NCBI RefSeq assembly: GCF_000718775.1 | Contig: NZ_JOCB01000140.1 | Span: 1 to 18,939 of the forward strand | Length of the DNA: 18,939 nt | Source of the DNA: Streptomyces sp. NRRL S-31 | GTDB taxonomy: Bacteria; Actinomycetota; Actinomycetes; Streptomycetales; Streptomycetaceae | Direction of reading: 5' to 3' | Shown here: one piece after another, positions 1,253 through 17,890 of the stretch | Layout of the letters: each line of letters opens with the position of its first letter | Numbering within the stretch: the first letter of the stretch is position 1 | The notes under the pieces: model-generated | Seen by the model: only the letters and a program-made list of their open reading frames with translations | Told to the model about the DNA's origin: nothing | Database searches by the model: none | Program-made: the position numbers and the translations under genes

Positions 1253-1318
1253 CGTCCTGATGGCTTTGCAGTCCGCAAGATCGTCGCAGGCCCCGCGGGA
1301 CATCGCCCTGCCCACTCA
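1253..1318 (-). repeat. Left arm of 66-bp inverted repeat flanking the MDR/TetR pair
   Basis: Read on the minus strand from the MDR stop codon (TGA, 1318-1316), this 66-nt segment matches 2959-3024 on the plus strand with about 4 mismatches. Weaker similarity continues roughly nine bases further outward. Each arm begins exactly at the stop codon of its gene and contains a short GC hairpin around a GAT loop. The perfect version of that hairpin is in the right arm. Confidence 0.85.
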
Positions 1319-2251: not shown

Positions 2252-2263
2252 GGCGAGAGATGG

Positions 2264-2278
2264 TGCCACTGAGTGGCA
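2264..2278. promoter_or_regulatory. Candidate TetR operator palindrome
   Basis: TGCCACTGAGTGGCA is a perfect 7-1-7 palindrome. It lies 12 bp upstream of the MDR ATG and 44 bp upstream of the TetR ATG. Its size and position between divergent genes fit the operator of a self-regulating TetR repressor that also controls the oxidoreductase. The role is inferred from position. Confidence 0.7.
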
Positions 2279-2322
2279 TAAGCCTGCAAGAGGCAACAGT
2301 CACTGGGGGGTAGGCTTCGCTC

Positions 2323-3367: not shown

Positions 3368-3399
3368 GATTGCTCCGCAGTCGTGTCGTTGATGTGGAC

Positions 3400-3894
3400 A
3401 TGGGGCGGGGCGATCTGACGGATGCCGAGTGGGAACGGCTGCGGCCCTTCCTGCCGGTCAGCGACAGGCGTTGTGGCAGGTGGCGGGATCACCGGCAGGT
3501 GATCGACGGGATTCTGCACCGGGTGCGGACCGGCGTTCAGTGGCGTGACCTGCCCGAATGGTTCGGCCCATGGAAGACGGTGTGTGAACGCCGCCGCCTG
3601 TGGTCGGCCGACGGAAGGTGGGAACGCCTGCTCCAGCAGGTCCAGGCCGAGGCCGACGCGGCTGAGGAGATCGACTGGGACATCTCGGTCGACTCCACCA
3701 TCGTGCGGGCACATCAGCATGCTGCCGGCGCCCGCACCGAACCACCGCCGGCGCCCGTCTCAAAGGGGGCCGAACCGGCAGAACACCAGGGCGAGCCGCC
3801 GTGGCAGAGCCTCGTTGCCCGCCTGGTGGAGGTGGTGCAGGAGGTGAGGGCCTGGGCCGCTCGCGGGGCGGGTTCACCACCAAGCTCCACCTGA
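3400..3894 (+). CDS. IS5-family transposase, OrfA
   Basis: The 164-residue first half of the transposase starts at ATG 3400 (MGRGDLTDAEWERL), the same opening as the IS5 fragment at 18109. It contains the N-terminal DUF4096-type region, with RQVIDGILHRVRTGVQWRDL and W-x-x-x-C-x-R-x-x-x-W-x-x-D-GRW. The first catalytic aspartate is in WDISVDSTIVRAHQHAAGA. The frame leaves family similarity after about residue 110, and stops at 3894 inside the start of OrfB, which lies in the -1 frame. A full-length enzyme would need a -1 shift in the 94-nt overlap (3801-3894), where the conserved text moves to LGRSRGGFTTK. Either programmed frameshifting or a mutation is possible. Confidence 0.82.
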   Translation: MGRGDLTDAEWERLRPFLPVSDRRCGRWRDHRQVIDGILHRVRTGVQWRDLPEWFGPWKTVCERRRLWSADGRWERLLQQVQAEADAAEEIDWDISVDSTIVRAHQHAAGARTEPPPAPVSKGAEPAEHQGEPPWQSLVARLVEVVQEVRAWAARGAGSPPSST

Positions 3895-4331
3895 GTGCGG
3901 ACGGCCGCTGCCGCCCGCTGTCCTCGATCGTCACACCGGGACAGCGGGCGGACTGCACGCAGTTCAAGCCGGTGCTGGAGAAGATCCACGTCCCGCGGAT
4001 CGGGCCGGGCAGGCCGCGCAAGAAGCCTGAGAGCCTCGCGGCGGACAAGGCTTACAGCAACGGACCGTGCCGCGAGTACCTGCGGCGCCGGGGCATCCGG
4101 CACACGATTCCGGAGAAGACTGACAGCCAGGCCGCCCGACTGCGCAAAGGGTCACGCGGCGGACGGCCACCCGGCTTCGACGAAGAGCGGTACAAGAAAC
4201 GCAACACCGTCGAACGGGCGATCAACCGGCTCAAGCACGCTGGGGCCGTGGCCACCCGCTACGACAAACGCGGCCACGTCATCCTCGGGACCGCGACTGC
4301 CGCAGCCCTCGTCATCTGGCTTCGTACATGA
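3801..4331 (+). CDS. IS5-family transposase, OrfB (catalytic C-terminal half)
   Basis: The 176-residue second half of the DDE transposase has LGRSRGGFTTKLHLSADGR near the start, the second catalytic aspartate in AADKAYSN, and the glutamate-bearing block KRNTVERAINRLK. It ends in WLRT at TGA 4329-4331, inside the right inverted repeat. ATG 3801 is only a possible internal start, since the functional product is more likely an OrfAB fusion made by a -1 frameshift. No decay is seen inside this half, so the element may still be active. Confidence 0.82.
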   Translation: MAEPRCPPGGGGAGGEGLGRSRGGFTTKLHLSADGRCRPLSSIVTPGQRADCTQFKPVLEKIHVPRIGPGRPRKKPESLAADKAYSNGPCREYLRRRGIRHTIPEKTDSQAARLRKGSRGGRPPGFDEERYKKRNTVERAINRLKHAGAVATRYDKRGHVILGTATAAALVIWLRT

Positions 4332-4349
4332 TCGGCCGGACAAGTCCTA
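4326..4349 (-). repeat. IS5-family element, right terminal inverted repeat
   Basis: It is the reverse complement of 3344-3367 with two mismatches, and it overlaps the OrfB stop codon. A flanking CTAG ends at 4350. Confidence 0.88.
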
Positions 4350-4391
4350 GTCGCAATACCAGTGACTTTGTTGGGTTCTGGGGGACTGTAA

Positions 4392-5380
4392 ATCGTTCGG
4401 GTCTGTTTCGTAGTCGGTGGTGACGGTGAGCGAATCGAGGTGCTGCCCGGCCGGGAAGCCGCCACTTTGGAAGCCTGGCTGCGCGGGCATCCGGGCATCG
4501 AGGCCGTGTGCCGGGACGGATCGGCCACCTACGCCGAGGCGGTCCGCCGAGCCCTGCCCGACGCGGTCCAGATCAGCGACCGCCGGCACCTGTGGCACAA
4601 CCTCGCCGAGGCCGTCCCCAAAGAAGTCGCCGCGCACAGCACCTGCTGGGCGAAGGCGGGCCCGCCCCCGGCCGAGGGGAGACAGGCCGCCACCACACGT
4701 GAGCGCTGGCAGCAGGTCCACGCCCCGCGCGAGCGCGGAGTCGGCCTGCTGGAGTGCGCACGGCGCCTCAACCTCGCCTTGAACACGGTCAAGCGCTACG
4801 ACCGTGTCGCCGAGCCTGAACGCCTCATCCGCGCCCCCAAGTACCGGCCCACCCTCGTGGATCCCTACCGCGATCACCTGCGCAAGCGGCTGGAGAACCC
4901 GGCCGTTCCCGTCACCCGTCTCCTTCAGGAGATCAGGGAGCCGGGCTACACCGGCAACTCGAACCTGCTGGTCCGCTACATCAACCAAGGCCGCGTCGAG
5001 GCCGACCGGCCCGCCCTCTCGCCCCGGCGCCTGACCCGCTACCTGCTCCCCCGCCCCGACCGCCTCGAAGACCACCAAGCGGGAACGCATCGAGGCCGCC
5101 CGCACCACCTGCCACGAGATGACCGCTCTGACCGATCTCATCCACCACTTCGCCGCACTGCTGGATCCCGCCGACGGCAATGCCGCCCTGCTGAGCACCT
5201 GGATCACCTCGGCCCAGACCGAGGACCTGCCCCACCTGCATGCCTTCACCCGGGGCCTCGAGAAGGACCGCGCCGCGGTCGACGCCGCCCTCACCCTGCC
5301 GCACCACAACGGCGGCACCGAAGGCGTCAACAGCAGAACCAAGCTGATCAAGCGCCAGATGTATGGCCGCGCATCGGTGC
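4392..5380 (+). pseudogene. ISL3-family transposase, N-terminally truncated and frameshifted
   Basis: This is the DDE_Tnp_ISL3 part of an ISL3-family transposase without its N-terminal zinc-finger and helix-turn-helix half. The frame is open from about 4392 and shows LPGREAATLEAWLRGHPGIE, then DGSATYAEAVRRALPDAVQI and DRRHLWHNLAEAV. It continues through an inserted helix-turn-helix-like linker (RERGVGLLECARRLNLALNTVKRYDR) to LSPRRLTRYLLPRPD. Near 5045-5075 the reading frame changes, and CHEMTALTDLIHHFAALL through LPHHNGGTEGVNSRTKLIKRQ and MYGRA follow in the new frame. The usual final GFxLLRxRIL is degraded after about 5375. With a missing 5' half, a frameshift and a damaged tail, it cannot be functional. 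Confidence 0.82.
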
Positions 5381-5681
5381 CTGCGAGGGGGCGCGCTGAC
5401 TCTGTGCGGCCCCTCTGCCCCGGTCACATCGCCGTCGTCCCGACAGCGCAGCCGTCGATGGCGGATCCCTGGCTCGACGGCCCCGCACCCAGGCTGTGAT
5501 CCAAGCGCGGCGCGGAGCCACATCGGGGAACGCCTGTTCCCTGCTTCCAGCGCGCACCCGGTTCCGGACACCGTCCGTGCGGTGTGTTCGGGCGCGGCGG
5601 CGGCCATCACGAAGAAGATCCGACCGCTGCGACGAACCACTTTGGGTTCCCCCGGCTTCCGTGCCCGAGGCAGCCTGCACG

Positions 5682-6707: not shown

Positions 6708-6721
6708 CTACGACAGTCCGT
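6670..6721. repeat. 18-bp direct repeat at the 3' end of the PucR-type gene
   Basis: TGGGCTACGGCAGTCCGT (6670-6687) recurs at 6704-6721 with one difference. The second copy spans the last codons and stop of the regulator, and the first lies just beyond its stop. It looks like a small local duplication of the gene end. Confidence 0.6.
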
Positions 6722-8465
6722 GGGCGACATCCAGCACCGTCAGCGCCGACCGGGCCTCGACGGCTGCGGTCGGGTCACGCAGGTCCAGCCCGGTCAGCGC
6801 TTCGATGCGGCGCAACCGCTGGCTGATCGTGTTGGGGTGGACGAGCAGCGCCTGCGCGGTCGCCTGGCGGTCCAGGCGGTGCGTCAGGTGCGCGCGCAGG
6901 GTTGCCACCAATGCGGTGCCGTGCTGCTCGTCGTGTCGGATCAGCGGGCCGAGGGTGCGATCGGCGTAGCCGCGCAGGGGCCCCGGATCGCCCAGCTGGA
7001 GAAGGAGGCCGGCTACGCCCAGCCCGTCCAGGGTGACGACGCCTCCGGTGCGGTCCGCGCGTGCGGCGACGGCGAGCGCGCCCCGGGCGGTGCGGTAGAC
7101 CTCGGCGAACTCGCGGTCGGTGGGGCCGGAGACGGCGACCGTTGCGGAGGTGACCCCGACAGCCGCTGACAGGGTCTTGCGCAGTGTCTCGGCGGCATCC
7201 GGACCCGCCTCGGGGCCGGACGCCTGGACCGGCCACAGCGCCACGATCGCGTCCTGGTGCTGACTCACCAGTGGGCGCGGGGTGATGGTGGAGGCCAGCC
7301 GGTTCGCTTCGTCCGCCGCATGCCTCAGGGCCAGGGCCGCACTGCCCCGCCCGGTGGTCTCGATCTTTGCGACCAGCGCACGGTGGGCGCGTGTCAGGTC
7401 ATGGCCGAGCAGACTGGCGCGGTGGCGGATCGCGTCCGTGCGGGGATCGGCGCCCCCGACCAGTTCCGCCAGCAGTTCGCCGCGCAGGTTCTGCTCGACC
7501 TCCAGCGCGGTGCGCCGACGGAGCAGTTCGAGTGACAGCACCACCGAGGCGTGCTCCAGTGCTCGGCGGTCCAGTGGGGACAGCGGCCCGGGGTGGCCGG
7601 GCAGCCACAGCCGGGCGGGCACCTCCCCGAAGAGGACGACGTCGGCTACGACGTGACCGTCCTGCTCGCGGACCAGCTCGGTGCCCGGTGCCGGTGCGGC
7701 CGTCGACCAGCCGGTGACGGGAGGCTCGGCAGGTGGCCCGGCCGCCGCCAGCACATCGCCGCGCGCGTCCTGCAGAAGCACCGCGGTGTCGAGCAGGTCG
7801 TGGAGGGCGGCGGCGATGCCGGGCATCCCGCCGGAGCGGACGGCCACCCGGAGCAGGCGTTCGTGGATCTGCTCCGAGCGGGTCACCAGTTGGTGCTGCC
7901 GGCGCAGGTCCTCGACGAGCCTGGCGGAGGTGATGGCGATCGCGGCGTGCTCGGCGAGTAGTTGCAGGCGACCGGTTTCCTCGGCGTCGAACTCGTGCAC
8001 CGTGGAGCGATAGCTGTTGAGCGTGCCGATCACGCCGGACGCGGTGACGAGCGGGACCGACAGCATCGAACGGTAGTCCTGGTCGTGCGCGACACCACCC
8101 CAGATGAATCCCGGCTCGCGCGAGATGTCGCTGACCGCGGCCGGCTTGCCGGAGCGGTATGCCCGGCTCGAGGGCGCGCCGCTGTGCGCGTCGTCCTCCA
8201 GCGGGACCGGGTGGTCGGAGTTGACCCGGGCGACGTAGGTGGCCGACAGCCCACTCCATGCGGCGATCACCAGGTTGCGTTCCTCGGCGTCAGGCAGCAG
8301 GACGCCGCAGAAGTCGAGCCCGAGCAGGTGCCGGGCCGTCGAGGCGACCCTTTCCAGCACCTCGCGCAGCCCCCGGCCGGCGTTCACGGCCGACGTCAGC
8401 GTGCCGATCGCGGCCAGCCAGGCACGCAGCTCGTTCCTGTCCTCCACGAGAGAGGAGTGTTTCAT
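6708..8465 (-). CDS. GAF-domain PucR/CdaR-type transcriptional regulator
   Basis: The 585-residue regulator has an N-terminal GAF sensor (about residues 20-185: LLGLDFCGVLLPD, AYRSGKPAAVSDI, MLSVPLVTASGVIGTLNSY). A linker and a CdaR GGDEF-like region (about 300-440) follow. The C-terminal PucR helix-turn-helix (about 515-570) contains RQATAQALLVHPNTISQRL and RRIEALTGLDLRDP. Regulators of this layout sense small molecules in the cytoplasm and usually activate neighbouring catabolic genes. It lies head-to-head with the seven-gene operon (108 bp between starts), so control of that operon is the simplest reading. ATG 8465 lacks an obvious ribosome site. A GTG seven codons in (SLVEDRNEL) is an alternative, also without one. 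An inverted repeat starts three bases upstream of the ATG. Confidence 0.9.
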   Translation of the reverse strand: MKHSSLVEDRNELRAWLAAIGTLTSAVNAGRGLREVLERVASTARHLLGLDFCGVLLPDAEERNLVIAAWSGLSATYVARVNSDHPVPLEDDAHSGAPSSRAYRSGKPAAVSDISREPGFIWGGVAHDQDYRSMLSVPLVTASGVIGTLNSYRSTVHEFDAEETGRLQLLAEHAAIAITSARLVEDLRRQHQLVTRSEQIHERLLRVAVRSGGMPGIAAALHDLLDTAVLLQDARGDVLAAAGPPAEPPVTGWSTAAPAPGTELVREQDGHVVADVVLFGEVPARLWLPGHPGPLSPLDRRALEHASVVLSLELLRRRTALEVEQNLRGELLAELVGGADPRTDAIRHRASLLGHDLTRAHRALVAKIETTGRGSAALALRHAADEANRLASTITPRPLVSQHQDAIVALWPVQASGPEAGPDAAETLRKTLSAAVGVTSATVAVSGPTDREFAEVYRTARGALAVAARADRTGGVVTLDGLGVAGLLLQLGDPGPLRGYADRTLGPLIRHDEQHGTALVATLRAHLTHRLDRQATAQALLVHPNTISQRLRRIEALTGLDLRDPTAAVEARSALTVLDVAHGLS

Positions 8466-8468
8466 AGG

Positions 8469-8491
8469 ACATAACTGCTGTCGAATTATGT
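8469..8491. promoter_or_regulatory. Candidate operator between regulator and catabolic operon
   Basis: ACATAA-N11-TTATGT is a perfect 6-bp inverted repeat in an AT-rich patch of an otherwise GC-rich intergenic region. It starts 3 bp upstream of the regulator ATG and about 83 bp upstream of the aldehyde dehydrogenase. The half-site centres are 17 bp apart. Position suggests a binding site for the divergently encoded PucR-type protein. Confidence 0.5.
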
Positions 8492-8573
8492 TCCCGCTGA
8501 CATATCGGCCGCCTGCGGGCGTGGGTCAGACTCCGTAAGCCCCCTCCGCCGGATCACACCAGAAAGAGCCGGT

Positions 8574-10064
8574 ATGTCTATGACTTCTGTTTCGTCTCCT
8601 GCTCACCCGCTTCCCGCCACTGGTTCGGGCCGCCCGGTGTTCGACCCGGCCACCGGGGCCGTCATCCGCACCGTTCCCGACAGCTCCGTCGCCGAAGTCG
8701 ACGCGGCCGTCGCCCGTGCCCGCGAGGCGTTCCTCGAAGGCCCGTGGCCCACGCTGACCCGGACGGCACGCGGCCGCCTGCTGCTCCGCGTGGCGGACAT
8801 CGTCGAGGAGGCCGCCGAGAACCTTTACCGTCTCGAGACCCGGAACAACGGCCGCCCGGTCACCGAGACCCGCGCGCAGCTGTCCCGGGTACCGGAGTGG
8901 TTCCGCTACAACGCCGCGCTGCTGGCCGCCCAGCGGGACGCGGTGCTGCCCTCGGACGGGCCCTACCTGACCTACCAGCGCCGGGCTCCGCTCGGGGTCT
9001 GCGGGATCATCACGCCGTTCAACCACCCGCTGCTGATCCTGGCCCGCAGCCTCTCCGCGGCGCTGGCGACGGGCAACACCGTGGTGGTGAAGCCGTCCGA
9101 GACCACGCCGTTGTCCACCTTGGCGATGGCCGAACTGTTGACGAAGGCGGGGATCCCGGCCGGCGTGGTGAACGTGGTGACCGGCGGTCGTGACGTGGGA
9201 GAGCGGCTCACCGGGCACCCGGACGTCGCCAAGATCACCCTGACCGGCGGGACCGAGGCCGGACGGGCGGCCGCCGTCGCCACCGCGCACCGCTTCGCCC
9301 GGGTGACCGCCGAGCTCGGCGGCAAGACCCCGATCGTCGTGTTCGACGACATCGACCCCGGCGTCGCCGCCGAAGGGGCGGCGTTCGCCGCCTTCGTCGC
9401 GGCCGGGCAGTCCTGTGTGGCCGGTTCCCGCTTCCTCGTCCAGCGTGCGAGCTACGACCGGTTCGTCACGGCGCTCACTCGGCGGGCGGACGCGATCCGC
9501 ATCGGTGACCCGTCGGACCCGGCCACCCAGCTCGGCCCGATGGTCAGTGCGGCGCAGCGGGAGAAGGTCCTGGCACTGATCGAGAAGGGACGCGCCGAAG
9601 GGGCCCGTGTCGCCGCCGGGGGTGGTGTCCCGGAGCTGCCCGCGCCCCTGGACGGCGGGTTCTTCGTCCGTCCCACCGTGCTCGCCGACGCGACGATGGA
9701 CATGCAGGTCGCCCGTGAGGAGATCTTCGGCCCAGTCGCCGTCGTCGTGCCGTTCGACGACGAGGCCGACGCGATCGCCAAGGCCAACGACAACCGGTTC
9801 GGGCTCGGCGCGGGCGTGTGGACCCGTGACCTGGCCCGCGGACACCGGGTGGCCGACCGTATCCAGGCCGGAATGGTCTGGGTCAACGACCACCACCGGC
9901 TCGAACCGTCGCTCCCCTGGGGCGGGATCAAGGAGTCCGGCACCGGCCGCGACGCGGGCACCGAGTCGTTCGACGACTTCAGCTGGCTCAAGACCGTCGT
10001 CGTGCGTACCGCGGCCGACGACGTCGACTGGTACGGCTCCGCTGAACCCGGCCGCCTCAACTGA
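8574..10064 (+). CDS. NAD(P)-dependent aldehyde dehydrogenase
   Basis: The 496-residue protein is a full-length ALDH superfamily member that oxidises an aldehyde to an acid with NAD(P)+. Visible landmarks are GVCGIITPFNHPLL, the cofactor lysine in VVKPSETTPLS, ELGGKTP with the general base E247, the nucleophile C281 in AGQSCVAGSR, and EEIFGPV. The spacing of 34 residues between E247 and C281 is the family norm. It reads closest to the broad group that includes betaine-aldehyde and (hydroxy/amino)muconate-semialdehyde dehydrogenases; I cannot fix the substrate. It is the first gene of the operon. Two start codons lie six bases apart (8574 and 8580), behind only a weak AGAAAGAG site. As a semialdehyde dehydrogenase it would follow ring opening by its neighbours. 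Confidence 0.94.
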   Translation: MSMTSVSSPAHPLPATGSGRPVFDPATGAVIRTVPDSSVAEVDAAVARAREAFLEGPWPTLTRTARGRLLLRVADIVEEAAENLYRLETRNNGRPVTETRAQLSRVPEWFRYNAALLAAQRDAVLPSDGPYLTYQRRAPLGVCGIITPFNHPLLILARSLSAALATGNTVVVKPSETTPLSTLAMAELLTKAGIPAGVVNVVTGGRDVGERLTGHPDVAKITLTGGTEAGRAAAVATAHRFARVTAELGGKTPIVVFDDIDPGVAAEGAAFAAFVAAGQSCVAGSRFLVQRASYDRFVTALTRRADAIRIGDPSDPATQLGPMVSAAQREKVLALIEKGRAEGARVAAGGGVPELPAPLDGGFFVRPTVLADATMDMQVAREEIFGPVAVVVPFDDEADAIAKANDNRFGLGAGVWTRDLARGHRVADRIQAGMVWVNDHHRLEPSLPWGGIKESGTGRDAGTESFDDFSWLKTVVVRTAADDVDWYGSAEPGRLN

Positions 10065-10101
10065 CCCGAAAGACGTTCGACTTACGGCAAAGGAGCCGCC
10101 C

Positions 10102-11493
10102 ATGTCGAATATCACCATTCCGTCACCCCAGACATGGCGCACCGTCATCACCCGCACCCAGTGGCTGGTGCTGGCCGGCACGACGATGGGCTGGGCGCTC
10201 GACGGGTTCGCGGGCAGCCTGTACGCGCTGATCCTCGGACCGGCGATGACGGAACTGCTGCCGCACAGCGCCATCGTCCCCGCCGCAGACACCATCGGTC
10301 TCTATGGCGGCCTGACCGTCGCGCTGTTCCTCTTCGGCTGGGGCACGGGAGGGATCCTGTTCGGGATCCTCGCCGACTACTTCGGCCGCGTCCGGGTCCT
10401 GTCCGCGGGCATCGTGACCTACGCCGTGTTCACCGCGCTGGCCGCGTTCGCCGACACCTGGTGGCAGCTGGGCGTGCTGCGGTTCATCGCCGGGCTCGGT
10501 TCCGGCGTCGAGGCACCGGTCGGTGCGGCCCTGGTCGCCGAGGTGTGGCGCAACCGCTACCGGGCCCGCGCCTGCGGCGTGATGATGTCGGGCTACGCGA
10601 TGGGCTTCTTCCTCGCGGCGCTGTGCTACTCCCTCATCGGCGACCACGGCTGGCGACTGATGATGGGCATCGCCGTCCTGCCGGCGCTGCTGGTGTACTT
10701 CCTCCGCCGGCACGTGCCCGAGCCGCCGGAGATCCGCGGCACGATCACCGCGCGCCGCGCCCGGCGGGCCCGCGGACAGCGCGATGAGCAGGACCGGTTC
10801 GTGCTGGCCCGATTGCTCACCCCGCCGCTGCTGCGGCCCACCCTCGTCGGCACGACCCTGGCCACCGGCTCGCTGATCGCCTTCTGGAGCGTGTCGACCT
10901 GGTACCCGCAGGTCATCCGGCAGGCCGCGGCTGCCGCCGAGCTGAGCCCGGACGTGGCGAACTCCCGCGTCGCCACCGCCTCCATGCTGTTCAACGCCGG
11001 TGGCGTGCTGGGCTACGCCACCTGGGGCTTCCTCGCCGACGCGATCGGCCGCCGCCGGGCGTTCGCCACCAGCTTCGCGGTCTCCGCCGCCGGCGTGGGG
11101 TTCCTTTTCCCGTTCGAGCACGGATGGGGAACGTTCCTGACCGTCATCCCCCTCGCCGGGTTCGGCCTCTACGGGGCCCTGTCCGGGATCCTCGTCTACG
11201 GCCCGGAACTGTTCCCACCGTCGGTACGCGCCACCGGAATAGCGCTGTACAACGGCATCGGCCGGTACATCACCGCGGCGGGTCCCCTGGTCGCCGGCGT
11301 GATCGCGGCGTCGTGGTTCGGCGGCGATCTCGGCCTGGCCACCACCTGCGTGGTCGCGGTCGGCCTGCTCGGCGCGCTAGGCCTGCTCTTCGCCCCTGAA
11401 ACCCGCGGCCTGGCCCTGCCGGCCGACCCCGACCCCGACCCCGGCCCGGAACCCGCACCGGACGCCGCGGCCCGTCTTGAGGAGAGTTCCTGA
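10102..11493 (+). CDS. MFS transporter (aromatic acid/sugar-porter-like)
   Basis: The 463-residue protein has about 12 hydrophobic segments in two halves. Each half has an MFS motif A in the loop after its second helix: GILADYFGRVRVL and GFLADAIGRRRAF. The first helix carries an acidic residue (WALDGFAGSLYALI), as in organic-acid/H+ symporters. A cytoplasmic tail rich in Asp-Pro repeats ends the protein. The start ATG 10102 has AAAGGAG seven bases upstream; the frame is open further 5' but that part is antisense-like filler inside the dehydrogenase gene. It starts 37 bp after the dehydrogenase stop and its own stop overlaps the hydroxylase start. It probably imports the pathway substrate at the membrane. 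Confidence 0.92.
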   Translation: MSNITIPSPQTWRTVITRTQWLVLAGTTMGWALDGFAGSLYALILGPAMTELLPHSAIVPAADTIGLYGGLTVALFLFGWGTGGILFGILADYFGRVRVLSAGIVTYAVFTALAAFADTWWQLGVLRFIAGLGSGVEAPVGAALVAEVWRNRYRARACGVMMSGYAMGFFLAALCYSLIGDHGWRLMMGIAVLPALLVYFLRRHVPEPPEIRGTITARRARRARGQRDEQDRFVLARLLTPPLLRPTLVGTTLATGSLIAFWSVSTWYPQVIRQAAAAAELSPDVANSRVATASMLFNAGGVLGYATWGFLADAIGRRRAFATSFAVSAAGVGFLFPFEHGWGTFLTVIPLAGFGLYGALSGILVYGPELFPPSVRATGIALYNGIGRYITAAGPLVAGVIAASWFGGDLGLATTCVVAVGLLGALGLLFAPETRGLALPADPDPDPGPEPAPDAAARLEESS

Positions 11494-12683
11494 TGACCCC
11501 CTACGCCCACGCCCGCGCCGTCGTGATCGGTGGCTCCATCGGCGGGCTGACCACCGCGCTGCTGCTGCGCGACCTCGGTTTCGAGGTCGACGTCTTCGAG
11601 CGCACCCCGACCCCGCTGGACGGTCGCGGCGGCGGGATCGTGCTGCAGCCGGACACCGTCCGCTGGTTCGCGGAGCGCAGCGAACAGCATCCCGAGACGC
11701 TGTCCACCTCCACCGACCACGTGCAGTACCTCGGCCCCGGCAACGAGATCGTGCACCGGGAGCGGCGCCGCTGGACCTACACCTCGTGGGGGACCTTCTA
11801 CCGAGCGCTGCTCGCCGACTTCGGCACCGAGCGCTACCACCTCGGCGAGTTCGCCTGCGGTGTCACGCAGGACGCCGACCGCGCGACGGTCCGGTTCGTC
11901 AGCGGCCGGAGGGCGGAGGCCGAACTGGTGGTGTTCGCCGACGGAATCACCTCCGTCGGCCGCCGGCTGCTCGACCCGGAGTCCGCGATGGAGTACTCCG
12001 GCTACATCGGCTGGCGAGGCACCGTGCCGGAGCACCAACTGCCCGGCGAGGTGCGGTCGCTGCTGGGTGACGCGATCTCCTACAGCGTCGTCCCGCATTC
12101 GCACATCACGCTCTATCCGATCCCCGGCGAGACCGGGACCGGGCCGCAGGACCGGCTGATCAACTACGTCTGGTACCGCAACGTACCGGCCGGCCCCGAA
12201 CTGGCCGAGATGCTGATCGACAAGCGCGGCTTCACCGGCACCGTTTCGCTCCACCCCGGCCAGGTCCAGGACCGCTACGTCGACGAGATGCGTGCGACCG
12301 CGGCCGAGTTGCTGGCCCCGGCCGCGGCCGAGGTCGTCACCGCCACCGAACAGCCCTACATCCAGGTCGTCTCCGACGTCCGGTCGGCGAAGATGGCCGA
12401 GGGCCGCATCGCCCTGCTCGGCGACGCCGCGTCGGCCGCCCGCCCGCACGCCGCCGCCGGCACGGCCAAAGCCGCCGCTGACGCCTGGGCCCTGGCCGAG
12501 GCGCTGACCGGCTCCGACGGCGACATACCGGCCGCACTGCGCAAGTGGGAGCCCGCGCGGCTCGAACTCGCCTCCCGCCTGCTGGAGCGTGTGAAGGAGA
12601 TGGGCGAGCGCTCCCAGTTCCACAACAACTGGACGCCCGGCGATCCGAACCTGCGCTTCGGCCTCTACGGCCCGGGCCGTTGA
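11493..12683 (+). CDS. FAD-dependent aromatic hydroxylase, 2,6-dihydroxypyridine 3-monooxygenase-like
   Basis: The 396-residue flavoprotein monooxygenase has a Rossmann FAD site (AVVIGGSIGGLTTALLL at 9-25, E36 for the ribose) and the second FAD motif GRIALLGDAASAARPHAAAG (GD at 310-311). The length, the YIGWRGTVPE and ITLYPIPGE segments, RPHAAAGTAKAAADAWAL, and the closing GDPNLRFGLYGPG all resemble the 2,6-dihydroxypyridine 3-monooxygenase of nicotine-degrading Paenarthrobacter (397 residues) as I remember it. The reaction would be NAD(P)H- and O2-dependent hydroxylation of an electron-rich ring, sometimes with loss of a carboxyl group. Its ATG overlaps the transporter stop (TGATG), with a GAGGAG ribosome site. 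The family assignment is firm. The pyridine substrate is a hypothesis, since related enzymes act on other phenols. Confidence 0.9.
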   Translation: MTPYAHARAVVIGGSIGGLTTALLLRDLGFEVDVFERTPTPLDGRGGGIVLQPDTVRWFAERSEQHPETLSTSTDHVQYLGPGNEIVHRERRRWTYTSWGTFYRALLADFGTERYHLGEFACGVTQDADRATVRFVSGRRAEAELVVFADGITSVGRRLLDPESAMEYSGYIGWRGTVPEHQLPGEVRSLLGDAISYSVVPHSHITLYPIPGETGTGPQDRLINYVWYRNVPAGPELAEMLIDKRGFTGTVSLHPGQVQDRYVDEMRATAAELLAPAAAEVVTATEQPYIQVVSDVRSAKMAEGRIALLGDAASAARPHAAAGTAKAAADAWALAEALTGSDGDIPAALRKWEPARLELASRLLERVKEMGERSQFHNNWTPGDPNLRFGLYGPGR

Positions 12684-12715
12684 GCACCCTCCACCCTTAC
12701 CCGAAAGGACCCACG

Positions 12716-13156
12716 ATGACCGACACAGGATTCCTGTCCGACCTGCCTCTGGCCGGCGAACTGATCGGCACCGACTTCGAGGGCTGGAACCCCGAGTTGC
12801 GTGCCGAGTTCGAGGCCCACGCCCACGACGGAGCGGTCGGCTCGCGGCTGCTCAGTCAGAACGACCGCGTACGGGTCTGGGAGATCCGCCTCGCGCCCGG
12901 CGAGCGCTGGCACGCCCACCGGCACGTCCTGGACTACTTCTGGACCGCGGTGAACGCCGGCCGAAGCCGCCAGCACACCAGCGACGGCACCACCCGCGAC
13001 GTCGCCTACGCCGCAGGGGAGACCCGGCACTTCACCTTCGCGGCGGGACAGTACCTGCTGCACGACATCGAGAACGTCGGCGACACCGAGCTGGTGTTCA
13101 CCACGGTCGAGCACCTCGACAGCGCCAACGCGCCGCTCCCGCTGGACGCCGCATGA
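12716..13156 (+). CDS. Small cupin protein (BauB-like)
   Basis: The 146-residue single-domain cupin has motif 1 GERWHAHRHVLDYFW (H66, H68, H70) and motif 2 FAAGQYLLHDIEN (H116, N120). The usual motif-1 glutamate is replaced by D73 or Y74. This leaves a possible three-histidine metal site, as in some thiol and diketone dioxygenases. The text resembles cupins annotated BauB (beta-alanine degradation), whose biochemical role is unclear. AAAGGA precedes ATG 12716, and the stop overlaps the next start (ATGA). Open frame upstream of 12716 lies inside the hydroxylase gene and is ignored. Here it could be a ring-cleaving or tautomerising enzyme acting on the hydroxylated intermediate; that is inference from position only. 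Confidence 0.88.
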   Translation: MTDTGFLSDLPLAGELIGTDFEGWNPELRAEFEAHAHDGAVGSRLLSQNDRVRVWEIRLAPGERWHAHRHVLDYFWTAVNAGRSRQHTSDGTTRDVAYAAGETRHFTFAAGQYLLHDIENVGDTELVFTTVEHLDSANAPLPLDAA

Positions 13157-14109
13157 CCGGCGGGATCGACATCCACGCCCACTGGCTGCCCGAGGAACTG
13201 TTCGCACTGCCACCGGGCGCGCCGTACGGGCCGCTGCGCGACCGCGACGGCGAACTGCACCTCGGCGAGGTCCCGCTGTCGATCGCCACCCGCGCGATGA
13301 GCGACGTCACGGCGATCCGGGCCGACATGGCCGAAGCGGGCGTCGCTGTGCGGGTGCTCTCCGCGCCGCCCTTCGCCTTTCCGGTGGCCGGGCCTGCCCC
13401 CGACTACGTCGACGCGTTCAACGACTCACTCGCCGCAGTCGTCGCCGATTCCGGCGGTGCGTTGGCCGGCCTCGGCCTGGTGCCACTGGACGACGCCGCG
13501 GCGGCCACCGCCCGGCTGGTGGGTCTGGCGTCGGTGCCCGGGATCGCCGGCGTGGCGATCCCGCCGCTGCTGGGCAGCGAGTCGCTGGACTCCGGTGTGC
13601 TGCGGCACGTCCTCGCCGAGTGCACGCGGCTCGGGCTGGCCGTGCTGGTGCACCCCATGCAGCTGCCCCGGCCGGAATGGGCGCACCACTACCTGGCCAA
13701 CCTCATCGGCAACCCGGTGGAGACGGCCACCGCGGTGGCGGCACTGCTGCTCGGCGGGGTGCGCGAGGCGCTCCCGCGGCTGCGGATCTGCTTCGCGCAC
13801 GGCGGAGGCTGCACCCCTGGGCTGCTGGGCCGCTGGGACCACGGCTGGCGGGCCCGGCCCGACGTCCGCCGCGACTCGGCCCGCCCACCTGGCGAGGCGG
13901 TACGGGACCTGTGGTTCGACACCGTCACCCACGATCCGGCGCTGCTCGGCCTGCTGGCCGGACGGGTCGGGAAGCAGGCCGTCGTCTGTGGCAGCGACTA
14001 CCCGTTCGACATGGCACAGCACGATCCGCTCGGCTTCGCCGCCTCCGGCGGCCTGGACGCCGACACGCTCACCGCCAACGCCCGCGCCTTCCTGGGGTGG
14101 GCGCCCTGA
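13153..14109 (+). CDS. Amidohydrolase-2 family decarboxylase/hydrolase (ACMSD-like)
   Basis: The 318-residue TIM-barrel metalloenzyme has the full residue set of aminocarboxymuconate-semialdehyde decarboxylase relatives. These are H8 and H10 in GIDIHAHW, H167 in VLVHPM, H216 in CFAHGGG, and D282 in GSDYPFD. The spacing is close to the H9, H11, H177, H228, D294 set known for the Pseudomonas enzyme. Members decarboxylate aromatic or muconate acids, without oxygen or organic cofactor, or hydrolyse ring-opened products. PicC, a 3,6-dihydroxypicolinate decarboxylase, belongs to this superfamily and also works beside an FAD hydroxylase. The start overlaps the cupin stop (ATGA), so translation is probably coupled. 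The most likely role is decarboxylation of the hydroxylated substrate or its ring-opened product. Confidence 0.92.
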   Translation: MTGGIDIHAHWLPEELFALPPGAPYGPLRDRDGELHLGEVPLSIATRAMSDVTAIRADMAEAGVAVRVLSAPPFAFPVAGPAPDYVDAFNDSLAAVVADSGGALAGLGLVPLDDAAAATARLVGLASVPGIAGVAIPPLLGSESLDSGVLRHVLAECTRLGLAVLVHPMQLPRPEWAHHYLANLIGNPVETATAVAALLLGGVREALPRLRICFAHGGGCTPGLLGRWDHGWRARPDVRRDSARPPGEAVRDLWFDTVTHDPALLGLLAGRVGKQAVVCGSDYPFDMAQHDPLGFAASGGLDADTLTANARAFLGWAP

Positions 14110-14204
14110 GCGGGCTGTAGAAGCCCCTGCGGCTGCGCCGCCGGCAACTGCCAGACCGGTTCCGACGCACGGGCCGGTGTACCCATCGACACAAGGAACA
14201 CGCC

Positions 14205-14900
14205 TTGATCAGCCTCGACCACATAGCCGTCTGGTCGGACAACCTCTACCGAACCACTGCCGAGCTGAGCCGGAGGACCGGCCTCGGAAGCGCCGACGGC
14301 GGCTACTTTCCCGGTCTCGGCCTCGGCCAGAAGCTGCTGTCGCTCGGCGGCCACGTGTACATCGAAGTCGAGAGCATCGTCGACCACCGGATGATCGCCG
14401 AGCGGGCCCCGATGGCGTTGGAACTGGAACGCCAGACCGCCGACGGGGACTGTTTCGCCGGGCTGTGCCTGCGCAGCGACGACCTCGACGAAGTGGCGGA
14501 GTTCGCCCGCCACCGCGGCATCACGCCCGTCGGGGACATCGCCGGCGGCAAGGTGCGCATGGTTCCCGCGCAGGGCACCTCGCCCGCGGTGCACGCGCCG
14601 GACTTCCGGAACTCCTGGCTGCTGGGCAAGCCCAACATCTACTACGTCCCCGACCTGACGAACCACTCCAGTCTGCTTCCCCCGCAACCCGGCACCGGTG
14701 ACGTGCGGGGGACCGGTGTCACCGCCATCGAGATCGGCGGTACCGAGTCCGGCTTGAAGGCCTGGCTCGGCGATGTCGTCGCGCCCGCGGAACTCGGCAT
14801 CGACATCGCCTACAACGGCGGCCCCGACGGGCTCTATGCGGTCACCTTCGACACCACCGACGGCCCCCGGACCATCCGGCTCCACCCGATCACCTTCTGA
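14205..14900 (+). CDS. VOC-superfamily (glyoxalase-fold) protein
   Basis: The 231-residue protein begins at TTG 14205 (MISLDHIAVWSDN), with AAGGA eight bases upstream. It opens with the LDHIAV strand typical of VOC/glyoxalase-like domains (H6) and has a later GGHVYIEVESI strand (E54 or E56) that could complete a metal site. The length fits two betaalphabetabetabeta modules of the Glyoxalase_3 type rather than a one-module glyoxalase. The family includes extradiol ring-cleavage dioxygenases, isomerases and lyases. No classical ring-cleavage dioxygenase is otherwise visible in the operon, so this gene or the cupin is the best candidate for that step. The gap of 95 bp from the amidohydrolase is the longest inside the operon. 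Confidence 0.82.
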   Translation: MISLDHIAVWSDNLYRTTAELSRRTGLGSADGGYFPGLGLGQKLLSLGGHVYIEVESIVDHRMIAERAPMALELERQTADGDCFAGLCLRSDDLDEVAEFARHRGITPVGDIAGGKVRMVPAQGTSPAVHAPDFRNSWLLGKPNIYYVPDLTNHSSLLPPQPGTGDVRGTGVTAIEIGGTESGLKAWLGDVVAPAELGIDIAYNGGPDGLYAVTFDTTDGPRTIRLHPITF

Positions 14901-14934
14901 GCCCCGGCTCAACCGCACAATCAGGAGCTGCCCC

Positions 14935-16242
14935 ATGCTCACGACTTCTCACGCCCTCAGCGCGCCGAGATCCCGGAAGATCCGCCGCGCGGCAGTCTCC
15001 GGCTTCTTCGGCAGCGCACTGGAGTACTACGACTTCCTGATCTACGGGTCGGCCGCCGCCCTGGTCTTCGGCAAGATCTTCTTCCCGGACGCCGGGGCGA
15101 CCGGGACGCTGTTGTCGATCGGCACGTTCGGCGTCGCCTACGTCGCCCGTCCCTTCGGTGCCGTGTTGTGGGGACACCTGGGGGACAAGCTGGGCCGCCG
15201 GCTCGCCCTCATCCTGACGATCAGCCTCATGGGCGTCGCCACGTTCGCGATCGGGCTGTTGCCCTCCTATGGCACGATCGGCGTCACGGCTCCGATCCTG
15301 CTGGTCCTGCTCCGCCTGCTGCAGGGCCTGTCCGCGGGCGGTGAGTCGCCCGGATCGACGTCCTTGACCATGGAGCACGCCCCGGAGAACCGGCGCGCCT
15401 ACTACGCCGGCTTCTCCATGAGCGGGATGCAGCTCGGCATGGGCCTGGGCAGCCTGGTGTTCCTGCCGCTCGCGGCCCTGCCCGAGCAGCAGTTGCTGAC
15501 GTGGGGCTGGCGGCTGCCGTTTCTGCTCAGCGGCGTGCTGACGGTCGTCGCCTACCTTCTGCGGCGCAAGGTCGAGGAGCCGGAGGTGTTCACCGGTATG
15601 CAGGAACGCCAGGAGCGCGCCTCGCTGCCCATCGCCACGCTGCTGCGCGAGTACTGGGTGGCCACTCTGCGTGTGGCGATATGCAGCACGATCAACGTCG
15701 TGGGAACCATCTTCACCGTCTTCGCCCTCGCCTACGCGACCGATGCCGCCGACATCTCACGGCCGGTGATGCTCACCGTGGTGTCGCTGGGCAACCTGGG
15801 CGCGGTCGTGATGGCCCCGCTGGTCGGGCGCCTGTCGGACCGGATCGGCCGCAAGCCGGTGTTCGTGCTCGGCGCCCTGGGCTCCAGCCTGTCGTTGTTC
15901 GTGCTGTTCGACGCCATCGACGCGGGCAACACGCCGCTGGTGTTCGCCGCTGGGATCATCGGTACGGGGGTCTTCTTCATCATGCCGGTCGGAGTCGGCG
16001 CGGCGTACTACCCGGAGCAGTTCCCCGCGCAGGTCCGCTACACGGGCATGGCGGTCGGGCTGATGCTCGGCCTGCTCGCCTCGGGATTCGCTCCCGCCCT
16101 GGCCCAGGGACTCAGTGCCGGCGAGAGCACCTGGCACCCGACCGTGTGGATCTGTGTCGGAATCTCGGTTCTGGCCTCGATCGCGGTGCTGAGCGGCCCG
16201 GAGACCTACCGCGTGCCGACGAACCAGCTCGGCCGGCGATGA
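14935..16242 (+). CDS. MHS-type MFS transporter (metabolite:H+ symporter)
   Basis: The 435-residue membrane protein belongs to the metabolite:H+ symporter subfamily. It opens with AAVSGFFGSALEYYDFLIYG, the helix-1 signature. WGHLGDKLGRRLAL is the first motif A, LLRLLQGLSAGGESPGSTSL is the helix-4/5 signature, and GRLSDRIGRKPVF is the second motif A. Relatives carry shikimate, alpha-ketoglutarate, citrate, proline/betaine and aromatic acids. AGGAG lies seven bases before ATG 14935, and the gene starts 34 bp after the VOC gene. It is the last gene of the operon, with hairpins just past its stop. It is unrelated in subfamily to the transporter at 10102, so the operon encodes two different import (or import and export) routes. 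Confidence 0.93.
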   Translation: MLTTSHALSAPRSRKIRRAAVSGFFGSALEYYDFLIYGSAAALVFGKIFFPDAGATGTLLSIGTFGVAYVARPFGAVLWGHLGDKLGRRLALILTISLMGVATFAIGLLPSYGTIGVTAPILLVLLRLLQGLSAGGESPGSTSLTMEHAPENRRAYYAGFSMSGMQLGMGLGSLVFLPLAALPEQQLLTWGWRLPFLLSGVLTVVAYLLRRKVEEPEVFTGMQERQERASLPIATLLREYWVATLRVAICSTINVVGTIFTVFALAYATDAADISRPVMLTVVSLGNLGAVVMAPLVGRLSDRIGRKPVFVLGALGSSLSLFVLFDAIDAGNTPLVFAAGIIGTGVFFIMPVGVGAAYYPEQFPAQVRYTGMAVGLMLGLLASGFAPALAQGLSAGESTWHPTVWICVGISVLASIAVLSGPETYRVPTNQLGRR

Positions 16243-16324: not shown

Positions 16325-16804
16325 CTCACCTGCGACGACCAACTCGCCCGGCCTCACTGCTGTGGTCGATGCGCGCCTGTCACCGGCAGCGGTGGGAGGA
16401 GGCGCTCGGGCACTGCGCGTCAGTAGGAGGCCGGCTCGGCGCACGCGCAGGCGAGTGGTCGGCCGGCGTATCTGCCGCCTGTGGCGGCCAGCCCGGGGCC
16501 GCCTGCTGCTGGACGCGGGCCAGCTGTCGAAGGCAGCACGGGAGCCAGCGGCCGTCGGGCCAGGACCGCATCGGCCGGGTGTCTCTGCGGTGGATTCAGC
16601 GGCACTGATGTGTAGGTGTATCGGCCGAGAACGGAAGGACTGTGGCGTTGAACGCTGTATCACCGGGAACGGACAGGGGGCCCACGGGAGAGAAATGCTC
16701 AGATCCTGTGGATCGGCTCGGGGAGGACGTACCTTCCCGGGTGATTGATCGATAGGTCACCGAGCAAGAACGGTGTTCGCAGCACCGGCGGGGAAGGCAC
16801 GTCC
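16325..16804. other. Intergenic region, no gene seen
   Basis: These 480 bp between the operon and the IS256 remnant hold open frames on both strands, but none has recognisable protein content or a good start. The part from about 16690, with CAGATCCTGTGGATCGG, may include the eroded left end of the IS256 element, whose relatives carry similar text near their ends. I could not identify a matching right end. Confidence 0.4.
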
Positions 16805-17761
16805 GTGCTCAGCGTAGTGAACGACGACGGCACCACCGCCAACGGCTCCTCCCTGGTCGACGAGGTCGTCCGGGAGGGCGCAAGAAGGATGCTGGCCGCC
16901 GCGCTGGAGGCTGAAGTCAACGCCTACATAGCCGAGTTGGCTGACCAGTGTGACGAGCGTGGCCGTCGCCTGGTGGTCCGCAACGGCTACCACCAGCCCA
17001 GGAAGGTCACCACCGCGGCTGGCATAGTCGAGGTGAAGGCGCCGCGGGTGAACGACAAGCGCGTCGACGAGACCACCAGCGAGCGCAAGCGGTTCTCCTC
17101 CGCGATTCTGCCGCCGTGGTGCTGCCGGTCCCCGAAGATCAGCGAAGTGCTGCCGCTGCTCTACCTGCACGGACTGTCCTCCGGCGACTTCGTGCCCGCG
17201 CTGGAGCAGTTCCTCGGCAGCTCGGCCGGGCTGTCGCCGGCAACGGTCACCCGGCTGACCCAGCAGTGGCAGGCCGACCACGCCGCGTTCATGGACCGCG
17301 ACCTCGCGGAGGTCGACTACGTGTACGTGTGGCCAAAGCCTGCGTACTCGTCCTCGTCGGCGTGCGCGCCGACGGCAGCAACGAGGACCGCGACCTCGCG
17401 GTCAAGGCGATCAAGACGTTCGCCCAGCTCTACGGAGCGAAGTTCCCCAAGGCCGTCAAGAAGATCAGCGATGATGAGGCCGAGCTGCTGGCGTTCCACG
17501 ACTTCCCCGCCGAGCACTGGATCCACCTGCGGACGACCAACCCGATCGAGTCCACATTCTCCACCGTCCGCCTGGCGCACCAAGGTCACCCGCGGCGCCG
17601 GCTCCCGCACCGCAGGACTGGCGATGGTCTTCAAGCTCGTCGAATCCGCCCAGGCCCGGTGGCGGGCCGTGAACGCACCCCACCTCGTCGCCCTCGTCCA
17701 CGCCGGAGCCCGCTTCGAACACGGCCAACTGGTCGAGCGCCCCGCCACTGCCGCGGCATAG
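16805..17761 (+). pseudogene. IS256-family (mutator-type) transposase, internally deleted
   Basis: A transposase_mut-family gene is readable from about GTG 16805: LVDEVVREGARRMLAAALEA, then RNGYHQPRKVTTAAGIVEVK and APRVNDKR, LPLLYLHGLSSGDFVPALEQ, and DLAEVDYVYVW. Near 17335 the frame shifts. ACVLVLVGVRADG then runs directly into LAVKAIKTFAQLYGAKFPKA and AEHWIHLRTTNPIESTFSTV. A second shift near 17580 returns to the first frame for TKVTRGAGSRTAGLAMVFKL up to the TAG at 17759-17761. Compared with intact relatives, the DGIHV-type stretch after DYVYVW and roughly 70-80 residues after VRADG are gone, which removes the central catalytic part. It is dead. The edges of the element are not clear. Confidence 0.85.
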
Positions 17762-17774
17762 GGTCTGGTGCACC

Positions 17775-17890
17775 ATGACCGACCACCACACCTACGGCAC
17801 CAGCACCCACACCGCCGGCGAGCTGGTCCGGCTCGTCAGTGACCGTCTCGGGCTGGTCTTCACCGAGCACGACAGCGACTACCGAGGCGT
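17775..17890 (+). pseudogene. Fragment of a small ORF following the IS256 transposase
   Basis: ATG 17775 starts MTDHHTYGTSTHTAGELVRL, followed by VSDRLGLVFTEHDSDYRGV, about 39 codons. It begins 13 bp after the transposase stop. The pattern (a helix, then GLxFTExDSxYRGVY) resembles the start of a conserved small actinobacterial protein of unknown function that I recall from Streptomyces genomes. The rest is replaced at about 17888-17892 by an inverted IS5-family fragment. A link to the IS256 element is suggested by spacing alone. Confidence 0.45.

What the first reader, a model, noticed from the sequence alone, without database searches (positions are those of the whole stretch)
8465..16242. 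Apparently undescribed catabolic cassette: GAF-PucR regulator, FAD hydroxylase, cupin, ACMSD-like decarboxylase, VOC protein, ALDH and two transporters
Seven same-strand genes with overlapping or short junctions, a divergent sensor-regulator and terminal hairpins form one unit containing uptake, ring hydroxylation, decarboxylation and aldehyde oxidation. Pairing a dihydroxypyridine-hydroxylase-like flavoenzyme with an amidohydrolase-2 decarboxylase parallels the picolinate route (PicB/PicC), but PicA- and PicD-like genes are absent and a cupin and VOC protein take their place. A hydroxylated pyridine or aromatic carboxylate is my best guess. I know of no described pathway with this gene set.
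Basis: partly seen in the sequence, partly recalled or inferred. Interest (0 to 1): 0.8.

Follow-up and report, generated by a model that had tools for sequence, protein, structure and literature searches.

The report
Conserved uncharacterised ring-acid catabolic cassette
A Streptomyces-like bacterium carries a mobile-looking set of eight genes, kept in the same order in several other soil bacteria, that probably takes up and breaks down a nitrogen-containing ring acid by a route for which I found no description.

Summary
In detail: seven same-strand genes (ALDH, aromatic-acid-type MFS, DHPH-like FAD hydroxylase, small cupin, ACMSD-like amidohydrolase-2, VOC protein, MHS transporter) with a divergent GAF-PucR regulator. 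The claimed terminal hairpins do not stand out from chance. In 9 of 16 named loci found with the amidohydrolase, hydroxylase-cupin-amidohydrolase follow in that order. In 4 of those 9 an alkene reductase (OYE) gene follows; this window lacks it.

The picolinate parallel fails in detail, since PicB is encoded by four genes. The guess of a hydroxylated pyridine acid gains support: the hydroxylase is sister to 2,6-dihydroxypyridine hydroxylase; four amidohydrolases 59-62% identical sit beside molybdenum hydroxylases; the amidohydrolase keeps ACMSD's metal site but has Ser for its Arg47 in 120 of 120 listed sequences; the cupin's best solved match is titled a triazine former.

My reading: decarboxylation, hydroxylation to a polyhydroxypyridine, metal-dependent ring processing. 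No step is shown biochemically, and a benzenoid meta-cleavage reading stays open. New variant of a known kind.

The parts
6708..8465 (-). GAF / GGDEF-like / PucR-type HTH regulator (585 aa), divergent from the operon
   Evidence: Pfam GAF_2 74 bits, GGDEF_2 54, HTH_30 62; relative (45-86% identical) at the same place in 7 of 9 cassette loci
8487..8504 (.). Candidate operator: inverted repeat TATGT-N8-ACATA between regulator and ALDH
   Evidence: aligned intergenic regions of six cassettes; TATGTC-N6-GACATA perfect in L011 and L014, no such pair reported in L013 and L015 with exact 6-base seeds; binding is inference
8574..10064 (+). NAD(P)-type aldehyde dehydrogenase (496 aa)
   Evidence: Aldedh 534 bits; best NCBIfam TIGR01804 478 bits, below cut-off; best solved relative 3r31, third 4go3, a putative gamma-hydroxymuconic semialdehyde dehydrogenase
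10102..11493 (+). MFS importer, aromatic acid/H+ symport-like (463 aa)
   Evidence: TIGR00895 179 bits, below cut-off
11493..12683 (+). Single-chain FAD hydroxylase of the 2,6-dihydroxypyridine hydroxylase type (396 aa)
   Evidence: NF005566 475 bits over cut-off 333; best solved relative 2vou DHPH 264 bits, next 82 bits; its clade groups with DHPH in a tree of 22 rows, support 99/98
12716..13156 (+). Small single-domain cupin (146 aa) with three invariant His and an invariant Tyr
   Evidence: H68, H70, H116 and Y74 invariant in 30 aligned sequences; model pLDDT 75; best solved match 9u8o/9u8n AzcA by sequence and Foldseek, with 2fqp and 3lag of unknown function nearly tied in fold
13153..14109 (+). 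ACMSD-like amidohydrolase-2, probable metal-dependent decarboxylase (318 aa)
   Evidence: PF04909 72 bits; ACMSDs best solved relatives, E 4e-38; metal ligands kept, Arg47 position Ser in 120 of 120 listed sequences
14110..14204 (+). Gap where several relatives carry an alkene reductase (OYE) gene; no clear remnant of it
   Evidence: OYE after the amidohydrolase in L011, L014, L015, L023, L027, L034, L090; only weak matches of the gap to those loci
14205..14900 (+). VOC-fold protein, Glyoxalase_3-like (231 aa), role unknown
14935..16242 (+). MFS importer of the metabolite/H+ symporter type (435 aa)
   Evidence: TIGR00883 341 bits, below cut-off
3370..5399 (+). Remnants of IS4/5-type and ISL3-type transposases left of the cassette
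   Evidence: DUF4096, DDE_Tnp_1, DDE_Tnp_ISL3
16745..17778 (+). Mutator-type transposase split over two frames right of the cassette
   Evidence: Transposase_mut in both frames

Best explanation
A self-contained, inducible and probably horizontally moved cassette for using a hydroxylated N-heteroaromatic (pyridine-type) carboxylic acid as food. Two MFS proteins import it; the GAF-PucR protein senses it or a product and acts at an inverted repeat before the ALDH gene. The amidohydrolase-2 removes the ring carboxylate (non-oxidative, metal-dependent). The DHPH-type flavoenzyme adds a hydroxyl to the dihydroxypyridine-like product (2,6-dihydroxypyridine to 2,3,6-trihydroxypyridine is the model reaction). 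The three-His cupin works on that product and opens or rearranges the ring; ALDH oxidises the aldehyde that follows. In relatives that have it, an OYE reduces a double bond. Shown: gene content, conservation, retained active-site residues. Inferred: every reaction, their order and the substrate. My odds: catabolic cassette about 0.9, N-heteroaromatic substrate about 0.55, the exact 2,6-dihydroxypyridine route about 0.25.
For: Hydroxylase: 264 bits to DHPH against at most 82 to any other solved enzyme; grouped with DHPH, 99/98 support. Amidohydrolase: relatives at 59-62% identity lie next to molybdenum-hydroxylase subunits in L018, L019, L020 and L022 (Pfam for L019; the others by clustering with it), with a second flavin hydroxylase, 36% identical, in L020. 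In L025, molybdenum-hydroxylase genes, a frame-broken amidohydrolase and hydroxylase and the regulator-ALDH end of a cassette share one contig. A Rhizobium plasmid has OYE, VOC, cupin, hydroxylase, ALDH and amidohydrolase beside a molybdopterin/2Fe-2S/cytochrome c set. Arg47, which the ACMSD paper ties to substrate binding (passages of PMC9021598), is Ser in 120 of 120 listed sequences while the metal ligands and Arg235 stay, so the substrate is unlikely to be ACMS. The core is amidohydrolase-hydroxylase-cupin in L091-L093. The cupin's best solved match is AzcA, a triazine former by its entry title. In fungal nicotinate breakdown a hydroxylase is taken to make 2,3,6-trihydroxypyridine and an OYE to reduce it (passages of PMC9304392).
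Against: No amidase, deaminase or other nitrogen-releasing gene lies in the cassette. No molybdenum hydroxylase was found in the window or in the eight of nine cassette loci that went into. The closest solved amidohydrolases are ACMSDs, which act on an open chain, and the ALDH fits a semialdehyde as in meta-cleavage. The cupin also occurs without hydroxylase or amidohydrolase: 10 of the 13 wider regions match with the cupin alone. The flavoenzyme beside the molybdenum hydroxylase in L020 is a long branch outside the DHPH group, and rhizobial hydroxylases paired with the cupin fall in another clade. HCOMODA decarboxylase, a benzenoid-pathway name, is given to some homologues. The 120 sequences are all 60% identical or more to the query, so they are not independent.
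Confidence: 0.4

Rival explanations
1. Benzenoid meta-cleavage with later decarboxylation, as in the 3-hydroxyanthranilate, protocatechuate 2,3-cleavage or p-cumate routes (recalled): hydroxylase makes a diol or aminophenol acid, the cupin is the ring-cleaving dioxygenase, the amidohydrolase decarboxylates the carboxylated semialdehyde, ALDH oxidises it.
For: Best solved relatives of the amidohydrolase are ACMSDs, and those of the ALDH include a putative hydroxymuconic semialdehyde dehydrogenase; cupin and amidohydrolase genes overlap by 4 bases; some homologues are named HCOMODA decarboxylase.
Against: Arg47 of ACMSD is Ser in 120 of 120 listed sequences; the cupin matches no Pfam family at E<=0.001, so not the 3-HAO family model; hydroxylase is DHPH-like; no tautomerase, hydratase or aldolase is in the cassette, and no further gene family recurs in more than 2 of the cassette loci compared.
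Confidence: 0.3
2. Purine- or triazine-like chemistry: the flavoenzyme hydroxylates a fused or diazine-type ring as urate hydroxylase does, and the cupin rearranges the dearomatised product as AzcA is titled to do; the amidohydrolase then decarboxylates the resulting ring acid.
For: Best solved match of the cupin is AzcA; in two Methylobacterium plasmids the cupin and a flavoenzyme sit with uraD, uraH, a molybdenum hydroxylase and an NCS1 transporter.
Against: About 31% identity to AzcA; ALDH, OYE and two carboxylate-type importers do not fit purines (judgement); no uraH, uraD or amidase in the cassette.
Confidence: 0.1
3. The window copy is a decaying or partial cassette that no longer supports growth, because the OYE gene is absent and insertion-sequence remnants flank it.
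For: OYE absent here and in L012 and L046; IS remnants on both sides.
Against: All eight genes are open and 82-95% identical to their counterparts in L011, L012 and L014 (L012 holds only five of them); other OYE-type genes lie elsewhere in the genome, the best two 54% (one stop in the match) and 50% identical; L013, L016, L017 and L021 show no such OYE either.
Confidence: 0.1
4. Tailoring or self-protection genes of a secondary-metabolite cluster rather than catabolism.
For: Actinomycete host; flavoenzymes and cupins are common in such clusters (general knowledge).
Against: No biosynthetic core gene among the ten flanking frames scanned; the same core occurs with importers in Rhodococcus and in L091-L093.
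Confidence: 0.07

Closest known systems
2,6-dihydroxypyridine 3-hydroxylase (DHPH) and the pAO1 nicotine lower pathway
   Same: Same hydroxylase subfamily; a PucR-family regulator is annotated in the corresponding region of a related plasmid
   Different: No amidohydrolase-2 or OYE is annotated in the 13-kb region around dhpH; its small cupin is not detectably related (17-residue match, E 0.048)
Picolinate pathway PicABCDEF (Alcaligenes, Bordetella)
   Same: An amidohydrolase-family decarboxylase acting on a hydroxylated pyridine acid (PMC10142695)
   Different: PicB is encoded by four genes; PicA and PicD have no counterpart in the cassette; the PicC sequence itself was not compared
ACMSD (kynurenine / 2-nitrobenzoate route)
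   Same: Fold family, metal ligands, His224 and Arg235
   Different: Human Arg47 to Ser, Trp176 to Met, Trp191 to Asn in 120 of 120 (in my alignment the Pseudomonas ACMSD itself has Ala at the Trp191 place); no 3-HAO-family cupin
Fungal nicotinate (Hxn) pathway
   Same: Flavin hydroxylation to 2,3,6-trihydroxypyridine followed by an OYE (passages of PMC9304392)
   Different: HxnV resembles phenol 2-monooxygenase and 3-hydroxybenzoate hydroxylase; no amidohydrolase decarboxylase or cupin is mentioned in the passages seen; OYE missing in this window
AzcA cupin (PDB 9u8n, 9u8o, 9u8p)
   Same: Best solved match by sequence and Foldseek
   Different: About 31% identity over 97 columns; 100 residues long; 2fqp and 3lag (unknown function) score nearly as well in fold; no paper found

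Membership tests
DHPH-type flavoprotein hydroxylases (PRK07236) | Score over the curated NCBIfam cut-off | tested here: met
   NF005566 475 bits against 333
DHPH-type flavoprotein hydroxylases (PRK07236) | Groups with characterised DHPH in a tree | tested here: met
   99/98 support, 22 rows, midpoint root, no other characterised hydroxylase family in the tree; some rows are long branches
DHPH-type flavoprotein hydroxylases (PRK07236) | Hydroxylates 2,6-dihydroxypyridine | not testable with these tools
   needs enzyme assay
ACMSD | Metal ligands and catalytic His (H6, H8, H174, H224, D291, human numbering) | tested here: met
   119 of 120 at H8, 120 of 120 at the others
ACMSD | Substrate-binding Arg47 | tested here: not met
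   Ser in 120 of 120 listed sequences, the window's own among them; role from passages of PMC9021598
Picolinate (pic) pathway | PicB encoded by four genes | tested here: not met
   single-chain hydroxylase here; PicB described
Picolinate (pic) pathway | PicA dehydrogenase and PicD-type dioxygenase in the unit | tested here: not met
   none among the eight proteins by Pfam; rest of the genome not searched for them
Picolinate (pic) pathway | PicC orthologue | not tested
   PicC sequence not fetched
3-hydroxyanthranilate 3,4-dioxygenase cupins | Match to the Pfam family | tested here: not met
   no Pfam family for the cupin at E<=0.001
AzcA cupins | Close sequence and fold relation | tested here: inconclusive
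   E 7e-11 by sequence; 31% over 97 columns, TM 0.86 by target, on a model of pLDDT 75
VOC extradiol or HPPD-like dioxygenases | Fold and metal site | tested here: inconclusive

The most novel reading that the evidence does not exclude
A new bacterial route for dihydroxypyridine carboxylates: an ACMSD-like enzyme of new specificity strips the ring carboxylate, a DHPH-type flavoenzyme makes 2,3,6-trihydroxypyridine, and a three-His cupin, a family I do not know as pyridine ring openers, takes the ring apart, with an OYE step like that of the fungal nicotinate pathway in relatives that have the gene.
Probability: 0.22. Interest if true: 0.7.

Novelty: new variant of a known kind. Interest (0 to 1): 0.5.

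Why it matters
Many catabolic clusters lack a substrate, but this one is compact, recurs in several actinobacterial genera, has a recognisable enzyme set in Rhizobiales plasmids and offers a three-gene core that can be assayed directly. It would give a function to a widespread cupin (2594 proteins at E<=0.001 among 2651 candidates) that records name variously as hypothetical, quercetin dioxygenase-like or BauB, and to an ACMSD-like subfamily that some records name aminocarboxymuconate-semialdehyde decarboxylase although a substrate-binding residue is replaced. If the pyridine reading is right it adds a bacterial use of an OYE on polyhydroxypyridines, a step the fungal paper says had been detected only in its pathway (passages).

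Tried and rejected
Terminal hairpin as terminator: rejected. OYE deletion scar at 14110-14204: no convincing remnant by short blastn; translated matches weak, best 21 residues at E 3e-4, so 'never had it' and 'lost it' stay open. Kinship with the pAO1 nicotine cupin: not detectable. Riboflavin/lumichrome and 4-hydroxypyridine routes: passages read, gene sets differ (PMC12746152; PMC7356986). 3-hydroxypyridine in Agrobacterium: passages, goes by 2,5-dihydroxypyridine (PMC6525221). Homarine and isonicotinate literature: listings gave no matching cluster. Misses, counted: of the eight plasmid regions opened, L028 and L033 show the cupin with no hydroxylase or amidohydrolase, L031 has a VOC protein and L032 an alkene reductase and a glyoxalase but neither core partner; 10 of 13 regions have the cupin alone. 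L094 gave no usable gene calls, L095 only cupin and a weak transporter match. L024 and L026 show the amidohydrolase without a clear partner. Foldseek and VIA-align on the VOC model show a shared fold only. No sigma-70-like site was found, but only 0.2 are expected in shuffles, so that says little.
Full report
What is there. The window is the whole of contig C140 of an 8.7-Mb assembly. Eight open genes form the unit: regulator 6708-8465 (-), then ALDH, MFS, FAD hydroxylase, cupin, amidohydrolase-2, VOC protein and a second MFS on the + strand up to 16242. The MFS and hydroxylase genes overlap by one base and cupin and amidohydrolase by four; other gaps are 32 to 95 bases. Broken transposases lie left (IS4/5 type, ISL3 type) and right (Mutator type).

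Is it a unit? In 9 of 16 (L011-L017, L021, L023) hydroxylase, cupin and amidohydrolase follow each other; 7 of these 9 also show regulator, ALDH and MFS in place, and the other two contigs begin inside the cassette. The same order is in L027 (annotated Rhodococcus plasmid), L034, L046 and L090. When all predicted genes of 22 loci were clustered, no family other than the cassette's own occurred in more than 2 of the cassette loci put in; L012, L046 and L090 were not among them, and those other families were not named. So the borders look sharp and the flanks differ. The cassette is rare: the cupin at E<=1e-30 occurs in 17 of 392 same-genus genomes, the window's own counted, and at 95% identity or more in 2 of 392; in the class sample a match at E<=1e-45 is in 9 of 394. 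Together with the insertion-sequence remnants this suggests horizontal movement (inference).

A gene missing here. After the amidohydrolase, L011, L014 and L027 carry an OYE-type NADH:flavin oxidoreductase gene before VOC; L015, L023, L034 and L090 carry it without a VOC match behind it, L023 being cut by its contig end. Of the nine loci that makes 4 with and 5 without (L012, L013, L016, L017, L021; for all but L012, for the gap in L012). L016 and L017 have a transporter gene there. The window, L012 and L046 have a short gap instead. The genome has other OYE-type genes, best 54% and 50% identical.

The core. Of six regions from the class sample, L091, L092 and L093 have amidohydrolase, hydroxylase and cupin in that order, an NMT1/SsuA-type ABC importer upstream (Pfam for L091 and L093, the ATPase for L092) and a PucR-type regulator, with no ALDH, OYE or VOC match; L090 has the cassette from regulator to OYE; L094 and L095 show no core. 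In Alphaproteobacteria, Bosea, Rhizobium and Agrobacterium plasmids hold cupin, hydroxylase, ALDH, amidohydrolase and OYE in one locus, the latter two also VOC, in another order and with ABC and ActP transporters. The Rhizobium locus continues into a molybdopterin/2Fe-2S/cytochrome c set. In two Burkholderiales plasmids a VOC protein of about 160 residues stands next to a hydroxylase where Rhizobiales have the cupin, together with amidohydrolase, alkene reductase, a second hydroxylase and such a molybdenum set. That exchange hints that cupin and small VOC do the same job (inference).

Enzymes. The hydroxylase is over the PRK07236 cut-off; DHPH scores 264 bits against 82 for the next solved enzyme. 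In a 22-row tree the actinobacterial clade of ten groups with the two DHPHs at 99/98 support, while hydroxylases paired with the cupin in Rhizobiales group with those of Methylobacterium and Burkholderiales (several long branches, so their place is unsure). The amidohydrolase is nearest to ACMSD. Over the 120 listed sequences (window's own included; 684 had E<=0.001 among 8000 scored) the metal ligands and Arg235 are kept, but the Arg47 position is Ser, Trp176 is Met and Trp191 is Asn in all 120, human numbering. Passages of PMC9021598 tie Arg47 and Arg235 to ACMS binding, so this looks like an ACMSD-like enzyme for another acid. The cupin has H68, H70, H116 and Y74 invariant in 30 sequences, the usual cupin ligand set with Tyr where Glu is common (motif recalled). 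Its model is of middling quality (pLDDT 75) and best matches AzcA, whose entry title says it forms a triazine carboxylate, with two cupins of unknown function close behind. I found no paper on AzcA in the library. The VOC model is good (pLDDT 93) but matches only the fold at large.

Substrate. Three lines point to an N-heteroaromatic acid: the hydroxylase kinship; molybdenum-hydroxylase subunits next to amidohydrolases 59-62% identical in L018, L019, L020 and L022, with L025 holding such genes and the regulator-ALDH end of a cassette on one contig (L016 is from the same genome and its contig begins in the MFS gene, so the two may adjoin); and the cupin's company (uraD, uraH in Methylobacterium; AzcA). 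Against it: no nitrogen-releasing gene in the cassette, ACMSD kinship, an ALDH that fits a ring-cleavage semialdehyde, HCOMODA decarboxylase names on some homologues, and the L020 flavoenzyme lying outside the DHPH group. The fungal nicotinate route (passages of PMC9304392) shows the same idea of a flavin hydroxylation to 2,3,6-trihydroxypyridine followed by an OYE, and states that the saturation step had been detected only there. The order in L091-L093 is what decarboxylation, hydroxylation, ring processing would give, but gene order is weak evidence.

Regulation. Intergenic DNA before ALDH in six cassettes aligns over an inverted repeat, perfect as TATGTC-N6-GACATA in L011 and L014, one mismatch in the window (8487-8504), not reported in L013 and L015.

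Verdict. The closest-pathway parallel is wrong in detail, the substrate guess is strengthened but unproved, and the cassette is best called an uncharacterised, conserved catabolic module: a new variant of a known kind. Searches for a description (listings only, open-licence papers only) found none.

Noticed in passing
window 3370-5399 and 16745-17778: Frame-broken or partial transposases (IS4/5, ISL3, Mutator types) on both sides of the cassette.
   Followed up: partly
window 1316-2296 (-) and 2323-2961 (+): Zinc-type dehydrogenase-like gene divergent from a TetR/MftR-type regulator.
   Followed up: no
window 5682-6218 (-): HATPase_c_2 protein; anti-sigma-like by general knowledge.
   Followed up: no
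L029 7307-15207, L081 5262-13174: In two Methylobacterium plasmids the cupin and a flavin monooxygenase sit with uraD, uraH, a molybdenum hydroxylase and an NCS1 transporter, which suggests urate catabolism with an unassigned cupin step.
   Followed up: partly
L062, L063, L064: Three unnamed same-genus genomes have hydroxylase (57-59%), cupin (75-76%) and a PucR-type regulator without amidohydrolase; in L062 zinc dehydrogenase and hydrolase genes lie on one side and HpaB, FAA hydrolase and DHDPS-family genes on the other.
   Followed up: partly
L078 6004-7714, L082 3862-5573: A VOC protein of about 160 residues precedes the hydroxylase where other clusters have the cupin after it: possible non-homologous replacement.
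   Followed up: no
L025 5904-7969: Amidohydrolase and hydroxylase relatives are broken by frame changes in this Streptomyces contig, by sequencing error or decay.
   Followed up: no
window 14177-14192: A second inverted repeat, GTGT-N8-ACAC, just before the VOC gene, similar to the one before ALDH; could be chance.
   Followed up: no
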